Shown: piece by piece, positions 15,320-27,693 of the stretch
Layout of the letters: each line of letters begins with the position of its first letter
Position numbering within the stretch: position 1 is the first letter of the stretch
Assembly (NCBI RefSeq): GCF_002196705.1
Contig: NZ_NADJ01000015.1
Span: forward strand, 1-64,000
DNA from: Desulfosporosinus sp. FKB
GTDB lineage: Bacteria; Bacillota; Desulfitobacteriia; Desulfitobacteriales; Desulfitobacteriaceae
DNA length: 64,000 nt
Direction: 5' to 3'
Made by a program: the position numbers and the translations under genes
The notes under the pieces: model-generated
Told to the model about the DNA's origin: nothing
Databases searched by the model: none
What the model saw: only the letters and a program-made list of their open reading frames with translations

Positions 15320-15426
15320 TAGATAGATACTACAAGCCGGATATAACGGGACAGAGCAAATACAAAACCATAAGACAACTGAGATTGGCGGAGATATCAT
15401 AAAGACAGACGGATAACTGAGAGCTT

Positions 15427-15505
15427 GAGCTGTATGTCTTGAAAGGGACACGTACAGTTCTTAGGCGAGAAAAAGGGCGCAATCCCTCTGACTTAGCCGA
15501 CAGTT
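15427..15505 (+). mobile_element. Group II intron 3' remnant (domains V and VI)
   Basis: Positions 15427-15460 fold as a 34-nt domain V: lower stem GAGCTGTAT/CGTACAGTTC, a two-base bulge, and upper stem GTCTT/GGGAC capped by a GAAA tetraloop, with the catalytic AGC triad. A domain VI-like hairpin follows to about 15505. No reverse transcriptase or 5' intron end was found, so only the 3' tail remains, next to the broken surface-protein gene. Confidence 0.8.
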
Positions 15506-16465: not shown

Positions 16466-16503
16466 GGGGTAATACCAGCGTAGCTGCCACCACCCGCAAA
16501 GTA
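16466..16503 (+). repeat. Tn3 terminal inverted repeat, left outer
   Basis: 38 bp from GGGG to GTA. Matches the copy at 23868-23905 (inverted) with two mismatches. Preceded by TATCT. The tnpI stop codon is 8 bp inside. Confidence 0.88.
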
Positions 16504-16510
16504 GATGGAA

Positions 16511-17218
16511 CTATATGGGAAACTTATTTATAACATCGTTATATTCTTGTTGGGCATCGGTGATAGCTAATTTCGAATATACCTCAAGAGATTTTCGGCT
16601 TTCATGACCGGAATATGGTTGAATAAGCGCATCATCTATGCCTTGCTTTTTCAGCCAGGTTAACAAAAAGTGCCGTAATTTATGTGGAGATAAATTCTGT
16701 ACTAGGCCGGCTTCTTCTGAGTACTTAGCTAAGATTTTTCGAATACCTCGATCCGTATATTTCTTTTTCCATGAAGATTCAAATAGATAAACGGCTTGTT
16801 TATTGGACATTGAATCAGCATGCATGGCCAGCAATTCCTTAAATGTTTGGGGGAACGGGACAATGCGATCTTTGTTCCCCTTGCCTTTATTTATCCTTAT
16901 TTGGCAGTAATGAAAATCAACATCTGTTAGCTTGATGTTTATTAACTCACTTACTCTTGCGCCGGTATAGAGTAGCGTTTTAACTATCATCATGTCTTGA
17001 AAGTTCTTAGTCTTCCAGACCACATCATAGTATCGCTTTATTTCTTCTTCCGTAGGAACATAAGGTAACTTCTTGGACGTTTTAGGTATTTCTATTTCTA
17101 ACTCAGCCCTCAAGTGTTGAAATAAGCTTTTTAGATAAGCATAGTCAGGCCGTTCTCCCCGGAGATACTTGGCCAGCTCCTTAGCTTTCTTTTTAGCCGA
17201 AGTTCTTTTCTCTGTCAT
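16511..17218 (-). CDS. tnpI: Tyrosine recombinase, TnpI-type resolvase of the Tn3 element
   Basis: 235-residue tyrosine recombinase with catalytic Arg in [14 protein letters not shown], the H-x-x-R box in [12 protein letters not shown], His in [10 protein letters not shown] and the nucleophile in VYSKL. In Tn4430-like transposons TnpI resolves cointegrates in place of a serine resolvase. It overlaps the tnpA stop by 4 bp, so the pair is co-translated; in Tn4430 tnpI precedes tnpA, whereas here it follows. The N-terminal SAM-like domain is short. Its core recombination site was not located. Confidence 0.87.
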
Positions 17219-20187
17219 GCAATCACACCTTCTTCCAAAGGAAGGCGTTCTCTCATGTTCAATTTGAACGTTCCATAAGGGTTAATATGGGTGTATACGA
17301 GAGGTGTGAGAGCACGAAAGTCTTCCGAAGTCATTAGGTTAAACCATTTTTGATTTGATAAGATGTTTTGAAGCATAATCGTGTTGATATACACCAAACA
17401 ATTCTGTAATAGGTGTAATGAAAGGACAGCGATCTCCTGATCATCTAGTCGGTTTGTCGATATTTCCCCACCCTTACCGTAAAAGATAAAGCTGTTTGCG
17501 CTATTCCAATTCTCCACGACGTTTAATCCTTTATGAATCTCCTGGCGCAGTTCTTCGGAATGCAGATAGTCACAGAGGAAAATGGTTTTTACGGCCTTCC
17601 CAAGCTCTCCTAAAGCCTGATAGGTCGGATGTTTAAGGTTATTGCGGGTAAATCGCTTTAAGATAGCTTCTGTTTCAGCAGTCCCAAGACGCAAGGCAGT
17701 AGCATACTTCACCATTTGGTCATACTGCTGGCGGATTAAATCCCAGTTGATTGGGCGTGTAAGTACCGGTTGAAGATTGGGGTAGGATTCAGCCATTCCG
17801 GATTCCGGTCGGTATAGCTTTTGAGAGTGAATGGCCTTTAGGCGCGGCATTAACTGATACCCAAGCAAATGACAGAAAGCAAAGGCTACTTCGCTTTGTC
17901 CATGGGAGTCAACGTAATTCTTCTCGACTTCCATTTCAGTACAATGCCTTAGCAAGCCCTCGATCATGGCGGCAACTTCGGATGAGGAACACGATTTTAG
18001 CTGCGAGTAAATACAGGTTGAATTCTTTTCTACGTGCCAATAGATCATAACGCCCCGGCCACGGTACCGGATATGCCATTCAGTCATGAGGTTTTGGTCC
18101 CAAGCGCCAAATTTCTTCGAATCAGAAGCACAAGAAGTGGTACCATCACCCCATATTTCCTGCATTCTAACTCTAAAGATTGCATTCACAACTTCAGCAA
18201 TAGCATTCCTTAGGTTATCCCGGTGTATAAACTTACGCCGTACGTAAAGCAAATCTTTATAGGATTCTTCATGTTCACCGGAGCTAATTCGTTTTAATCC
18301 TGTATTAGTATCTAATCCATATAGAGACAAAATCAATCTTCTTTGCAAAGTCTCTCGATCCAATATTTCCCGATTGGCCACGGTCTTGAACTTTTCGGTA
18401 AACGATACGCGCAAATCAGTTTCCTTTAAAACATCTAATAAGCTTGTCATTGGCCAGCGACGCAGTAATTCGGCTTTAATACGATTTAAGTTAGCCGGTT
18501 CTGCTTGCGGTTCCAAAGGCGATAAGGTTATCCACCCGTTTCCTTTCTCAATAATCCGGACTTTAGGATTTTTGGGAATTCCAACATCTAGACGTTCCAA
18601 ACCCTCAATCATTGCTTGTTTTAATGCGTTTATAAAGGATTCGGCATCCATGGGTTGATTAAGAGCTTTGTAGTTTTCTTCTCTCCGTATCTCGAAATCT
18701 GCAGGTAGGTCTTCATCAGGGTTACGATACCGGTCGGCACCTTTTACCCAAACTTCTTTACAACGAAGGCGATCCCTTAAGGCTTGAAGTGCGCTGATCT
18801 CATAATTGATACGGTTAATCCGTTCCTGGCCATTATCATCTTTTTCAATAATAATTTCTTTGTTTACGGAACGAATAACCCCATCCACCGGAATATCTTC
18901 TGACGCAGGAAAATAATGCAATCCGGTTTGAGCATACTTTTTGATAAGTTCAAGAGCTTTAATGACAGGCCGGTGAACCTCGTTGTTAGACTGGAATTGA
19001 AGGATGCTTAAGATTTCTGGAATCATCCGGCGATAGTGGCTGCTATAAGAGGCGCGAATTACAGTATGAATTTTTTCCCGGTAAGCTGGACCCGTACTTT
19101 TAAACTCTTTAACCAGGTCTTTTAACGTCTGTTCGCTGACTATCGGATAGAGAACGTCCTTAATTATCCCGTTCGGGAATTCCAGAGCTGTTTGCGCCAA
19201 GTTGAACAGGATGCCTTGTTTGTTGCTCACCCGCCGCAGATCGTTAAGTATTTCCTTTTCTACTCTGCGCTCAGCTCGTACTCCAATGCGGTGAATGATC
19301 TGGATAAGCAGTTCTATAAGATTATCGGTGATTTCCATTCTACGGAGGTAAAAGAAAGCGGATAACAGCGTGTAGCGTATCGGCTCAGGATGCCGGCGCA
19401 GTTCACGGATATCCTCGGTAGCCACACGTTGCTTATATTTTTTCAAGACTTTATACGGAACATCCCAGTAAAGATCATCCGGAAGATCCAAATTCAGAAT
19501 CGTTTTAAGCTTGTTAATTTCTTTAAAGACACTTTCTAGCCCTGGCCGGCCTGGATCTGACCTTAACTCATGAAAAGAAAGCTGATCGCCATTTTCACCG
19601 GTTGGTTCGTCTTTTTCCTCGTCCAGGGATGAGATACTATCTATCAGGACATCTAATTTGGACAAAGATGCTTTAGGTATCTTTTCATAGGTGGCTTTAA
19701 AGAATTGATCTTCAAAAGTGGAGATAGCAGACCTAATAAGTCGATCAATACGTTCCGGGGTAGGAGGAACAATTTTCTGCTCTCGGAACCGACGATACAC
19801 CATTTCCTTAATATGTTCAAATTCCTGGTCGTGATACAAGACGTTCTTGCACAACCAGTCGGTTATTTCATGAGCATCATGGACAGTGTCTTCTCTGAAG
19901 CCAAAGAATTCCCGTATTTGTGTTCGATGATATGTAATGGATCGTCCGGCCCAGTCGTACTTTGCGTACAGTTCTTGTGAACTATCAATTTGTTTGGCTA
20001 TATAACTAATAACCGCTTTAGGAACTTCGTATTTGTTTGTCGGAAACCTGGCTTCGTATTGGAAAAACTTAAACAGTACGGCAAAACCTATCCTGGTTTC
20101 ACCAGCCTTGTTCCCTATCTGTTGTAATTCATGGGGTAAGAAGGTGAAATGTTCTATTAGCTCATCCAATTCCCAATTCCTCTTCAT
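17215..20187 (-). CDS. tnpA: Tn3-family transposase
   Basis: 990 residues, the full length of Tn3-type transposases. The N-terminus ([19 protein letters not shown], about 1-170) is the DUF4158 domain; the C-terminal third is the DDE catalytic core with Asp in CASDSKKF (near 680), Asp in YVDSHGQSE (near 750) and Glu in [19 protein letters not shown] (near 880). No stop or frameshift was seen, so it may be active. It catalyses replicative transposition between 38-bp terminal repeats, which are present at both ends of the unit. Confidence 0.94.
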
Positions 20188-20456: not shown

Positions 20457-23147
20457 TTACAATAACTCTCCGTATTTCTTGACAAAAAGGGTTTTAATAG
20501 TTTGGGCAAGGGCCATATAGGCAACAATTGTAGCGATAAGCCACGGGAAATATATTAATGGTAACGGCGACATTTTAAGATATCCTCCGATAGGTGTAAA
20601 CGGGATAATTGTACCTACAGCAATAGCCAATGAGGTTAGAAGCAAAACGGGCTTAGACGCACGGCTTTGAATAAAAGGCACCTTCTTCGTACGAATCATG
20701 TGAATTACAAGTGTCTGCGACCACAGGCTTTCCACAAACCAACCAGTGTTAAACAGCGTCATAAATCCAGTTTGAGCTTCAGGGGTAAGGGTGTGATAAG
20801 CACCGCCGAATATACTGGGGCCAATAATAAAGAACATAAGCAGATACGTTGTTATATCAAAAACTGAGCTTGTGGGGCCAATCCACAGCATAAACTTACT
20901 GATTGAGGAAGCATCCCATTTTCGTGGTATTTTCAGGTAGTCGGCATCCATATTATCCCACGGGATTGAAAGGCAAGAAATGTCATAGATTAGATTGAGG
21001 ACAAGAATTTGTATCGGCAGCATCGGCAAAAAGGGCAAAAACGCACTCGCAACCAAAACCGAAAACATGTTGCCAAAATTGGAGCTTGCCGTCATCTTAA
21101 TATATTTAATGATATTTCCAAAGATCTTTCGTCCTTCGACAACCCCTTCTTCAAGTACCATGAGGTCTTTTTCCAGAAGAATAATATCCGCTGATTCCTT
21201 AGCGATATCAACTGCGGTATCAACTGAAATGCCGACATCAGCTGCACGCATTGCAGAAGCATCATTAATACCGTCACCGAGAAATCCTACTGTATGCCCG
21301 TTCTCACGGAGCAGTGTAACAATTCTTGCTTTTTGCTGCGGAGACAGTTTGGCAAATACACTCGTTGATTCTACTTCTAATTTCAGTAGTTCATCAGTCA
21401 TTCCTTCAATATCCGAACCAAGTAAAAGCTTGTCAACCGATAATCCAACTTGTTTGCAAATACAACGTGTTACAGCGTCATTATCCCCTGTCAAAATCTT
21501 AACCGCTACACCGTATTCGTTAAGTGCTTTGATAGCCGCCATCGTTGTTTCTTTGGGTGGGTCAAGGAAAGCAAGATAACCCATTAAAACCATCTCAGCT
21601 TCATCTTTAACGGAGAATACACCTTCTACGGACGGATTTGTTTTTTGTGCTACTGCAATCACACGCATGCCGTCATCATTAAGTTTAGCAACGGTTGCTA
21701 AGATTTCCTGTTGGATTTCGGAAGTTAGAGCCACAACCTGACCATTATATTCGGCGTATTTTGATACGGACAACATTTCCTCTACGGCACCTTTTGTAAT
21801 AAGTTGTGTTTTTCCTTCCCGATCTTTTAAAACAACGCTCATTCTGCGGCGTGTGAAGTCAAAGGGTATTTCATCAACTTTTTCGTATTTGCTTTCTAGA
21901 TTGTAAAAGGGTTGTTCTTTTGAATGTGTGAGAATAGCAATATCCATAAGATTTTTCAGCCCTGTTTGGAAATAGCTATTCAAAAAGGCGTGACGTAAAA
22001 CTCTTACGTCTTCGTTGCCATGAATATCAAGATGAAGTTCTAAGATAACTTTGTCTTGCGTTAGAGTACCAGTTTTATCAGTACATAAGACATCCATCGC
22101 TCCAAAGTTCTGCATAGAGTGCAGATGTTTAACAATTGTTTTTTTCTTGGACATCGAAACGGCACCCTTAGCGAGATTCGTTGTCACAATCATGGGCAGC
22201 ATTTCAGGGGTAAGTCCTACTGCTACGGATAAGGCAAAGAGAAAAGCTTCGAGCCAATCACCCTTTGTAAAGCCATTAATGAACAGCACGATTGGAACCA
22301 TAAACATCATGAAACGAATTAAAAGCCAGCTTACAGAGTTTACACCCTTGTCAAAGCTCGTCTCCACGCGTTTTCCAGTGACTGATTTGGCGATGGAGCC
22401 AAAGATGGTATTATCACCTGTAGCAATCACAACACAGACCGCAGAACCACTGACAACATTACTGCCCATAAATGCAAGATTTTCAAGCTCCAGGGGATTA
22501 CTTGACAATGCTTTTGGGGTTTGATGAACTAAGCTGCTGTATTTTTCGATGGGCTCGGATTCGCCCGTAAGAGCTGATTGACTAATAAATAAGTCTTTAG
22601 CTTGTAGTATGCGCACGTCAGCAGGAATCATATCTCCTGCAGCTAAATAAACGATATCCCCCGGTACAATATCTTCTAGGGGTATTTCCATTCTACCAAC
22701 ACCGTCACGCTCAATTGCAACGGTTGTATGCACCATAGCATTCAGCTTTTCGGCGGCATTATTGGATCGTGTTTCTTGTATAAAGCGCAACAAGCCACTA
22801 ATTGTTACCATCACGCAGATAATTATAACAGAAGATGGGTCACGATCCTCTGGTGCGGCCAATACAACATCAGTAAAAAGAGATATGACAGCAAGGACAA
22901 AAAGTACAACAGTAAAAGGATTTATAAAAGCATCGAATATCCTTTTAAGCACAGATTCTTGCTTATCATGGGATATTTCGTTACTACCGTACTCATCTCG
23001 TAGAGTGTTAACCATTTCTTCATTGAGACCGCGATACGAGGTTCCCATTTCCTTGAAAAGTGTTTCCGTTTCCATTTTACTGGAAGCAAGCAATTTTTCA
23101 GACATAGGGGATACATTGCTTTGTATAGTTTGAATTACTTTTTTCAT
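20457..23147 (-). CDS. mgtA: Magnesium-importing P-type ATPase
   Basis: 896 residues, type IIIB P-ATPase that brings Mg2+ into the cytosol. Cation-transporter N-terminal domain ([20 protein letters not shown]), actuator loop SALTGESEP, phosphorylation motif CTDKTGTLT, hinge [20 protein letters not shown], and C-terminal membrane helices rich in Pro/Phe. AAGGAGG precedes the ATG. Upstream on the same strand are an M-box riboswitch and a terminator, so it should be induced when Mg2+ is low. It sits inside the Tn3 unit between tnpA and the right TIR and is therefore a transposon passenger. Confidence 0.93.
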
Positions 23148-23504: not shown

Positions 23505-23552
23505 ATATTACCCAAGTTACATACACACATAAAAGTAGTGCATGATATCGTT

Positions 23553-23702
23553 CAAGCTTTAGCTTCGCAAGGCGATGAAATTGCATTAGAATATGCCTTG
23601 GTTTCGACATATCCTGCTAACCTTCTCATAGTGTCTCCACTACTCCGCGGCAGCAATCCGTATCCCTGCGGTAGCCTCACCTACCGAGTGTTATTTAGTT
23701 CA
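23553..23702 (-). promoter_or_regulatory. M-box (ykoK) Mg2+ riboswitch
   Basis: The minus strand carries the characteristic order GGTAGGTGAGGCTACC, GATACGGATTGCTGCCGC, AGTGGAGACACT, then AGGATATGTCGAAACCAAGG and CATCGCC, closely matching the ykoK leader consensus known from memory. M-box RNAs fold on Mg2+ and expose a terminator, turning off Mg2+ transporters. Position upstream of mgtA and of the terminator at 23468-23504 supports the call. Exact aptamer edges are approximate. Confidence 0.87.
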
Positions 23703-23867: not shown

Positions 23868-23905
23868 TACTTTGCGGGAGGTGACAGCTACGCTGGTATT
23901 ACCCC
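23868..23905 (-). repeat. Tn3 terminal inverted repeat, right end of the left unit
   Basis: Inverted copy of 16466-16503 with two mismatches. Followed by TAAAA, which does not match the flank of the left end. Confidence 0.85.
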
Positions 23906-24531: not shown

Positions 24532-24569
24532 GGGGTAGTACCAGCGAAGCTGTCACCAGGGGCAAAGTA
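24532..24569 (+). repeat. Tn3 terminal inverted repeat, left end of the right unit
   Basis: 38 bp, identical at all positions to the inverted copy at 26456-26493; about eight differences from the outer-left copy. Preceded by TAAGA. Confidence 0.88.
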
Positions 24570-26455: not shown

Positions 26456-26493
26456 TACTTTGCCCCTGGTGACAGCTTCGCTGGTACTACCCC
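26456..26493 (-). repeat. Tn3 terminal inverted repeat, right outer
   Basis: Identical, inverted, to 24532-24569. Followed by TATCT (26494-26498), which matches the 5 bp before the left outer repeat. Confidence 0.88.
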
Positions 26494-26507: not shown

Positions 26508-27311
26508 TCAATCAACACAAGATTTGAAATAGGAACATTTAGACTCCCTACATCCATGGGGATGGCGTGAACTATGCGTACAATTAATTGGTTCATGTGG
26601 TGTTGATAAGGATACATTTAAATATTCCTTAACTAATAAAACGGCCTCACTTAGTGCAATCCTTACAAAGTTTTTGCAACAGCACGGACCAGTTTGGGCA
26701 GCGATAGCATTAACTATTTTGCCTACTGCCTTCATTGTTGATGATGTTTCTTGGTCTTTACGACATGATGCACCCAAAACGACACTAAAACATGAACCAA
26801 TCGCGGGAGAAATTCCACATACCCCTGTTAGTCCGCAATATCCTCCGATAGCTTGTCTTTTGGTACGATTCATTGCTTCAACAATCTGTTCATCCGTAAC
26901 CTTAACTGTTCCTTCATTCCTGAGTGCTGTCATCAAAGCTCCTGATGCTATCCAGGCATTTTCACAACCGAGCATCGGAATGTTATCTTGGTTTATTAGA
27001 TACTCGGCAATTTCGAAAAGATTATTTGATTTATTGGCTAAAACATACTCCTTGACAGTTTCAAAGAGACCTTTTCCATGACATTCATCGCATACATAGT
27101 GTCCATTCGGGCAAGTGATATTGCCAATCTCTTTTTTGCCACATTGAATGCAAGTTAGTTCCCGTCCTGAGTTGAAGTATTCTAATTCGCCTCCGCAGAT
27201 TTGGCAGTTCTCAGTCTTAGTTTCAACGTGCTGACCAGCACTCAAATTAGATTCTCAACAACCTGATACTGACGTTATGGTGTTACTATTCTGATTCCGA
27301 ATTAAATCCAT
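26508..27311 (-). CDS. DUF5714 cysteine-rich protein, probable selenoprotein
   Basis: Starting at ATG 27311 (GGGGGG 7 nt upstream) the frame reads 18 codons ending SVSGC, then TGA (27255-27257), then continues in the same frame for 248 codons. A hairpin with loop GGTC starts 13 nt after the TGA, as in bacterial SECIS elements, so residue 19 is probably selenocysteine next to Cys18. The rest has two zinc-ribbon-like CxxC pairs (CQICGGEL, CIQCGKKE), CPNGHYVCDECHGK, and a Cys/Gly-rich core GYCGLTGVCGISPAIGSC typical of DUF5714. Cellular role unknown; a redox or metal-handling function fits. If TGA is a stop, the product would start from a TTG at 27245 with no ribosome site. Confidence 0.75.
27228..27257 (-). 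promoter_or_regulatory. Candidate bacterial SECIS with in-frame TGA
   Basis: TGA at 27255-27257; 13 nt later the stem GTGCT/AGCAC with loop GGTC (27233-27236). There are 18 nt between the TGA and the loop, within the usual range, and G leads the loop. The apex TGC-TGGTCA-GCA is nearly the E. coli fdhF apex (TGC-AGGTCT-GCA, from memory), with a compensated base pair. Confidence 0.75.
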
Positions 27312-27693
27312 CCCCTTTCCCCCCATTCTTTCTTTAACCACGTATTACACGATCTTAATTGTATGGAAGATCTTATTTCGTTTACATGTACTTTCGTTAC
27401 AGTCAAATTATCATAAATAACCACTTATATCAAGAATCCTTTATATTTGGTTTCCGGACTTTGTTGGCGGATCTCAAATAGCTGTATGAACTTATGTCAA
27501 GTATAGCAAAAAGAGTTGTTAGGTGGGTGCGAATCTGTGAATAGATCGCAATATTACCAATTGTCTAAATATAATTATTTTCATATCTGAGCAGGAATTT
27601 AATAAATTAAAAAGAATACTTTGGCGATTGAAAATAATAGGGATACCAAACGTTTTATAATTAAATTTCAAATTTGCTTTTGGAGGTGAATAT
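27312..27693. other. Divergent intergenic region
   Basis: AT-rich. TATAAT at 27656-27661 may be the -10 box of the plus-strand gene but no well-spaced -35 was found. Nothing else recognised. Confidence 0.4.

What the first reader, a model, noticed from the sequence alone, without database searches (positions are those of the whole stretch)
26508..27311. Probable new selenoprotein: DUF5714 with in-frame TGA and E. coli-like SECIS
An ATG with a good ribosome site opens a frame that meets TGA after SVSGC and continues without interruption through the whole DUF5714 protein. The hairpin after the TGA has loop GGTC and an apex nearly equal to the fdhF SECIS with a compensating base pair. The alternative TTG start has no ribosome site. 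Selenocysteine next to cysteine suggests a redox function.
Basis: partly seen in the sequence, partly recalled or inferred. Interest (0 to 1): 0.92.

Follow-up and report, generated by a model that had tools for sequence, protein, structure and literature searches.

The report
Single-domain selenoprotein related to MbdU
A bacterial gene (Desulfosporosinus-type) reads one UGA "stop" as selenocysteine to make a cysteine-rich, probably metal-handling protein; the protein family was already known to contain selenocysteine, but only in a larger two-selenium form, so this is a solid new variant and not a new discovery in kind.

Summary
Confirmed: a minus-strand gene (27311 to 26508) carries an in-frame UGA at codon 19 (SVSGC-U), then runs open through a complete DUF5714 protein. 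A GGTC-loop hairpin begins 13 nt after the UGA, with exactly 18 nt between UGA and loop, as in E. coli fdhF. About 60 homologous loci keep Cys-Sec. The hairpin covaries at all six pairs (41 double-change cells against 10.8 in shuffles). The window's genome has selA, selB, selD (itself UGA-containing) and tRNA-Sec. The clade without Sec machinery has Cys-Cys or Cys-Ser there and no hairpin. So this is a selenoprotein. It is not a new kind: NCBIfam NF045648 "metal-binding double selenoprotein MbdU" (Haft and Tolstoy 2025, as listed in PMC13188914) is CU-DUF5714 fused to a second Sec domain, DUF2284. The window gene lacks that half and fails the MbdU cut-off (392 against 600 bits). The single-domain, single-Sec form is the commonest architecture on the tree; DUF2284 fusions and an apparently uncatalogued AhpD fusion with three in-frame UGAs are scattered within it. 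Function is inferred: a flexible Cys-Sec tail that binds or transfers a soft metal(loid) or organometal(loid). A purely redox role is not excluded.

The parts
26508..27311 (-). Coding sequence of the DUF5714 selenoprotein: 267 residues with Sec at residue 19, stop TGA at 26508-26510
   Evidence: homologs
27312..27324 (-). Purine-rich ribosome-binding sequence GGGGGGAAAGGGG before the ATG
   Evidence: homologous start sites
27255..27257 (-). In-frame UGA read as selenocysteine, directly after a Cys codon (CU dyad)
27228..27241 (-). Apical stem-loop of the bacterial SECIS: GTGCT-GGTC-AGCAC, 18 nt between UGA and loop
27078..27206 (-). Invariant CxxC...CxxC and C-x3-H-x2-C-x2-CH motifs (residues 36-78), predicted zinc-type sites
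   Evidence: invariant columns
26526..27056 (-). DUF5714 domain (PF18978) with invariant Cys159, Cys165, Cys211, Cys212 and Cys244
   Evidence: confident fold
26468..26493 (+). Copy of an interspersed repeat right behind the gene; not part of the selenoprotein, but it marks its 3' border

Best explanation
The gene encodes a single-domain, single-Sec relative of MbdU. Shown by sequence: SelB with Sec-tRNA can read UGA codon 19 as Sec because a GGTC-loop hairpin sits at the E. coli fdhF distance, and the genome holds the whole Sec machinery. The product has a short flexible tail with a Cys-Sec dyad, then two invariant Cys/His metal-site motifs, then the helical DUF5714 core with further invariant cysteines. 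Inferred (about 0.45): the Cys-Sec tail is a soft-metal ligand that binds a metal(loid) or organometal(loid), for example an arsenic, mercury or corrinoid-linked species, and passes it to the Cys-rich core or to partner proteins. The confidence given refers to 'functional Sec-containing CU-DUF5714 protein, single-domain variant of the MbdU family'.
For: UGA is conserved as Cys-UGA in 42 loci from genome contigs plus the window, and all 28 close full-length matches in the own and related genomes, mostly of the same genus, carry an in-frame TGA. Hairpin: 89% of cells paired, 6 of 6 pairs with double changes, covariation score 0.51 against 0.23 shuffled and at most 0.15 when slid. Loop distance equals fdhF. 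The pre-UGA peptide is conserved in frame (mean score 20.8 against 11.7 and 13.1 out of frame). Own genome: selA, selB, tRNA-SeC with anticodon tca, selD with an in-frame TGA. 18 of 19 CU genomes tested have selA; 0 of 6 genomes with Cys-Cys or Cys-Ser and no hairpin have it (Fisher on a 17/18 count p = 5e-5). Family: NF045648 at 392 bits over positions 25-268. For function: CU also occurs in HgcA, SaoL, SaoC and the Csac_0668 CopZ family (PMC13188914); fusions to DUF2284 and AhpD-like domains; DUF5714 fused to radical SAM TrsS; neighbours include URO-D, RACo, DUF1638, CopZ-like metallochaperone, ArsP_2 and CbiM-type transport genes.
Against: No protein or selenium data. The window's own neighbours (amino-acid permease, FRG protein, methyltransferase, Tn3 transposase) give no functional hint, so the metal(loid) role rests on relatives, and neighbour enrichment was not tested statistically. 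The hairpin alone is not more stable than shuffles. No fdhF-like bulged U was identified in the window's stem. One homolog (L032) has Cys-Ser with the hairpin kept, so Sec may be dispensable there. No significant solved-structure match.
Confidence: 0.88

Rival explanations
1. The UGA is a real stop and the protein starts at the in-frame TTG at 27245 (245 aa), as a standard ORF finder calls it.
For: Table 11 gives this ORF; DUF5714 itself lies wholly inside it.
Against: Cys-UGA, the covarying hairpin and the pre-UGA peptide are conserved in dozens of homologs; a clade without selA has Cys or Ser codons there; the TTG has no convincing ribosome site and lies just before the hairpin stem.
Confidence: 0.03
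2. It is a selenoprotein, but the Cys-Sec dyad is a redox (thiol/selenol) centre, reducing a disulfide or peroxide or acting as an electron carrier, and not a metal(loid) ligand.
For: Most selenoproteins are thought to be redox proteins (PMC13188914); AhpD-type fusions carry a UxxC motif; weak similarity to the putative redox family C_GCAxxG_C_C.
Against: Adjacent Cys-Sec is not the usual CxxU/UxxC redox motif and recurs in organometal or metal proteins; neighbours are corrinoid and metal genes.
Confidence: 0.3
3. The window gene is a decaying MbdU that recently lost its DUF2284 half.
For: The closest relative L101 (78% identical) ends in a remnant of the MbdU linker; a repeat element sits right behind the window gene.
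Against: No DUF2284 remnant in the window; all invariant Cys/His are present; single-domain forms dominate the tree and occur in Clostridium, Moorella and others, with fusions scattered among them.
Confidence: 0.08

Closest known systems
MbdU, metal-binding double selenoprotein (NCBIfam NF045648)
   Same: Cys-Sec tail in front of the same DUF5714 domain; the window protein aligns to model positions 25-268 of 468.
   Different: No DUF2284 half and no second Sec; 392 bits against the 600-bit cut-off. L004 (Desulfosporosinus acididurans) is a true MbdU at 789 bits.
CU-DUF5714-AhpD fusions (L014, L019, L027, L039)
   Same: Same Cys-Sec DUF5714 module and SECIS.
   Different: Carry an AhpD-like domain with EPUTQYC and a C-terminal CKTU tail, three UGAs in all; no NCBIfam model reaches its cut-off for L019.
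ArsM/DUF2284, ArsM/AhpD and MduS selenoproteins (NF041536, NF041537, NF045649)
   Same: Share the DUF2284 or AhpD C-terminal Sec modules that other CU-DUF5714 proteins are fused to.
   Different: Their N-terminal half is a methyltransferase, not DUF5714; the window protein has neither module.
TrsS radical SAM (seleno)protein (NF045646) with C-terminal DUF5714
   Same: Same DUF5714 domain; at least one fusion (L169) has Cys-Cys shortly before the first CxxC, where the window has Cys-Sec.
   Different: Fused to a radical SAM enzyme, about 30% identical, Cys instead of Sec at the dyad.
C_GCAxxG_C_C family (PF09719)
   Same: Weak sequence similarity over the Cys-rich core (E 3.5e-4 for MbdU L004; hhalign E 2.8e-4, probability 41%).
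   Different: Much smaller proteins; homology not established.

Membership tests
Bacterial selenoproteins | In-frame UGA conserved in homologs and matched by Cys in non-Sec relatives | tested here: met
Bacterial selenoproteins | SECIS hairpin just 3' of the UGA, conserved by covariation | tested here: met
Bacterial selenoproteins | Genome encodes SelA, SelB, SelD and tRNA-Sec | tested here: met
Bacterial selenoproteins | Selenium shown in the protein | not testable with these tools
   needs 75Se labelling or mass spectrometry
MbdU (NF045648) | DUF5714 domain with N-terminal Cys-Sec | tested here: met
MbdU (NF045648) | Score above the curated cut-off of 600 bits over 468 positions | tested here: not met
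   392 bits, positions 25-268 only
MbdU (NF045648) | C-terminal DUF2284 domain with a second Sec | tested here: not met
   absent in the gene and no remnant downstream
DUF5714 (PF18978) | Score above Pfam gathering cut-off | tested here: met
   176 bits against 26.2 over 1-173/173
C_GCAxxG_C_C (PF09719) | Score above Pfam gathering cut-off of 27 bits | tested here: not met
   no PF09719 hit for the window protein; MbdU L004 reaches 21.1 bits
SDH_alpha / CyuA fold | Shared fold and sequence profile | tested here: inconclusive
   VIA-align Z 6.0 to CyuA within the background range; hhalign E 0.09

The most novel reading that the evidence does not exclude
Stand-alone, single-Sec CU-DUF5714 is the basic form of a wider selenoprotein family in Bacillota that the current catalogue sees only as the double-Sec MbdU; it gave rise repeatedly to two-Sec (DUF2284) and three-UGA (AhpD) fusions and serves as a selenothiol carrier of organometal(loid)s beside corrinoid methyltransferases. 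Because NF045648 scores it below cut-off, standard annotation would probably truncate most of these proteins (not checked).
Probability: 0.45. Interest if true: 0.55.

Novelty: new variant of a known kind. Interest (0 to 1): 0.42.

Why it matters
It widens a recently described selenoprotein family from one fused form to a module that is mostly stand-alone and has been combined with several Sec-bearing domains. It gives an annotation rule (Cys-UGA, GGTC loop 18-21 nt on, DUF5714) that would recover N-termini missed by standard gene calling, and it offers a small single-Sec protein in which the function of the Cys-Sec dyad can be tested without a second Sec domain.

Tried and rejected
Terminal TGA (26508) as a second Sec: rejected; read-through adds only INTR, homologs end at TAA or TGA at this point, no conserved sequence. 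Rfam: no selenocysteine element reported at gathering threshold in the window, which says little about a short bacterial SECIS. MFE stability of the SECIS: not significant on its own. Solved-structure search with the predicted model: no Foldseek match with E under 0.001; VIA-align put CyuA and serine dehydratase near the top at Z about 4.5-6, not supported by profile comparison. PDB sequence search: weak hits only, mostly zinc-binding proteins. The other TGA with a GGTC hairpin in the window (52198 +) lies in no open frame. The primary MbdU paper (mSystems 2025) and the 2023 Sao paper are not in the library, so MbdU is cited from the 2026 review and NCBIfam. deep-Sep paper: no hit for the terms searched that concerns this family. 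Plasmid-collection search: of seven matches only the Acetoanaerobium one is close, and its record has no gene table at the match, so public annotation of the Sec form could not be checked.

Full report
OBSERVATION. The gene lies on the minus strand. Its ATG is at 27311, preceded by GGGGGGAAAGGGG, and codon 19 is TGA at 27257-27255, directly after a Cys codon (SVSGC-TGA). With TGA read as Sec the frame runs without interruption to the stop TGA at 26510-26508, giving 267 residues. The table-11 ORF list starts only at a TTG at 27245. Pfam finds one domain, DUF5714 (176 bits, whole profile).

SECIS. After the UGA come 18 nt and then the loop GGTC, closed by GTGCT/AGCAC. In E. coli fdhF, read here from NC_000913, UGA is likewise followed by 18 nt and GGTC. 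The pattern occurs once in the window and in none of 100 shuffles. The stem is not unusually stable by itself (z 0.11). The strong evidence is comparative: in an alignment of 42 Cys-UGA sequences, window included, all six stem pairs show changes on both sides, 41 cells covary (10.8 in shuffles), the covariation score is 0.51 (0.23 shuffled; 0.05-0.15 with the partner slid by 1-3 columns), and 89% of cells are paired. Stems such as GGCGTT/AACGCC, GGTATT/AATACC and GATACC/GGTATC replace each other with full compensation. In a group of homologs with a 3-nt insertion the loop is at 21 nt.

HOMOLOGS. A scan of genome contigs gave 80 loci. In 42 of them the frame continues upstream into Cys-UGA (L034 was seen only). 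In a search of 60 related genomes and the own one, all 28 full-length matches above 350 bits carry the in-frame TGA. Start codons, most with Shine-Dalgarno sites, usually lie 8-18 codons before the UGA. The peptide before the UGA is more similar in frame than out of frame. A clade from Desantisbacteria, Omnitrophota and Bacteroidota MAGs has Cys-Cys (once Cys-Ser) at this place and no hairpin. selA reaches the family cut-off in 18 of the 19 CU genomes tested (the 19th, L043, a MAG, shows only fragments) and in none of the 6 genomes of that clade. L032 (Pelotomaculum MAG) has Cys-Ser with the hairpin still present, in a genome with selA.

MACHINERY. The window's own genome has selA, selB, a tRNA-SeC with anticodon tca next to selB and selD, whose best copy itself contains an in-frame TGA. 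DUF5714 occurs once in this genome. The genus is most likely Desulfosporosinus: L103 and L111, from genomes of the same genus as the window, match D. acididurans L004 and lie close to D. hippei L017.

WHAT IS KNOWN. NCBIfam NF045648, "metal-binding double selenoprotein MbdU", is the only model in that library that matches (392 bits, cut-off 600, positions 25-268 of 468). A 2026 review lists MbdU with motif CU and two Sec, citing Haft and Tolstoy 2025 (PMC13188914); I could not read the primary paper. L004 from D. acididurans is a full MbdU (789 bits): CU-DUF5714 followed by DUF2284 with a second UGA. The window gene lacks this half, and no remnant was found downstream. So it shares the MbdU N-terminal half but is not MbdU as defined. 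The review's table of 119 families lists no single-Sec DUF5714 entry.

ARCHITECTURES. Reading UGA as Sec, most CU loci are single-domain. L004, L103, L118 and L119 have DUF2284. L014, L019, L027, L039 and L115 have an AhpD-like domain with EPUTQYC and a tail ...ECKTU, three UGAs in all; L021 keeps only the tail. No NCBIfam model reaches its cut-off for the AhpD form (L019). On a maximum-likelihood tree (54 rows) single-domain forms dominate and the fusions do not form single clades; several deep forks are weakly supported, so the number of fusion events is uncertain.

STRUCTURE. AlphaFold2 on the 45-row alignment gave pLDDT 85 and pTM 0.82; residues 1-31 with the Cys-Sec dyad are disordered. 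Invariant residues include C36, C39, C54, C57, C67, H71, C74, C77 and H78 (two zinc-type motifs by inspection) and C159, C165, C211, C212 and C244 in the core. No solved structure matched significantly. CyuA at Z 6 in a second look is within the background for helical folds and is not supported by profile comparison. Weak similarity to C_GCAxxG_C_C appears in three comparisons and is a lead only.

FUNCTION (inferred). The Cys-Sec dyad also occurs in HgcA, SaoL, SaoC and a CopZ-family selenoprotein. DUF2284 and AhpD modules are shared with arsenite-methyltransferase selenoproteins. DUF5714 is also fused to the radical SAM protein TrsS; L169 has Cys-Cys shortly before the first CxxC, where the window has Cys-Sec. 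Recurrent neighbours of CU-DUF5714 in other genomes are URO-D and MetE-like proteins, RACo, DUF1638, DUF6951, a CopZ-like metallochaperone, ArsP_2, and by inspection CbiM-type cobalt transport and ArsR genes. I did not test this enrichment against controls. The window's own neighbours are uninformative. My preferred reading is a soft-metal(loid) or organometal(loid) ligand or carrier (about 0.45); a redox role is the main rival (about 0.3).

VERDICT. The selenoprotein call is right; the family was already known; this member is the single-domain, single-Sec variant. Interest is moderate.

Noticed in passing
16466-16491, 23880-23905, 24532-24557, 26468-26493: Four copies (0-3 mismatches, both strands) of an interspersed repeat, GGTGACAGCTTCGCTGGTACTACCCC, none expected by chance; one sits right behind the selenoprotein gene.
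   Followed up: partly
23536-23695 (-): M-box magnesium riboswitch (103.8 bits) upstream of a P-type ATPase gene at 20457-23147 (-).
   Followed up: no
15425-15501 (+): Group II intron match (53.1 bits), near a Tn3 transposase gene at 17215-20187.
   Followed up: no
L019:5001-6119, L039, L014, L027: CU-DUF5714 fused to an AhpD-like domain with three in-frame UGAs (CU, EPUTQYC, CKTU); no NCBIfam model above cut-off for L019.
   Followed up: partly
L021:5001-5771 and beyond: CU-DUF5714 that lacks AhpD but keeps the ECKTU tail, so probably two Sec in a further architecture.
   Followed up: no
L032:4977: Pelotomaculum MAG with TCA (Ser) in place of the UGA but with the GGTC hairpin kept, in a genome with selA: a recent Sec loss or a sequencing error.
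   Followed up: partly
L165-L169: DUF5714 at the C-terminus of radical SAM proteins; L168 and L169 score as TrsS, L167 resembles peptide maturases.
   Followed up: partly
L170 (G000:C35:161115-162041): The window genome's best selD copy contains an in-frame TGA, so SelD is probably a selenoprotein here; a second copy without TGA exists.
   Followed up: no
L101: Closest relative of the window gene; it ends in a remnant of the MbdU linker and then a stop, with no intact DUF2284 domain.
   Followed up: yes
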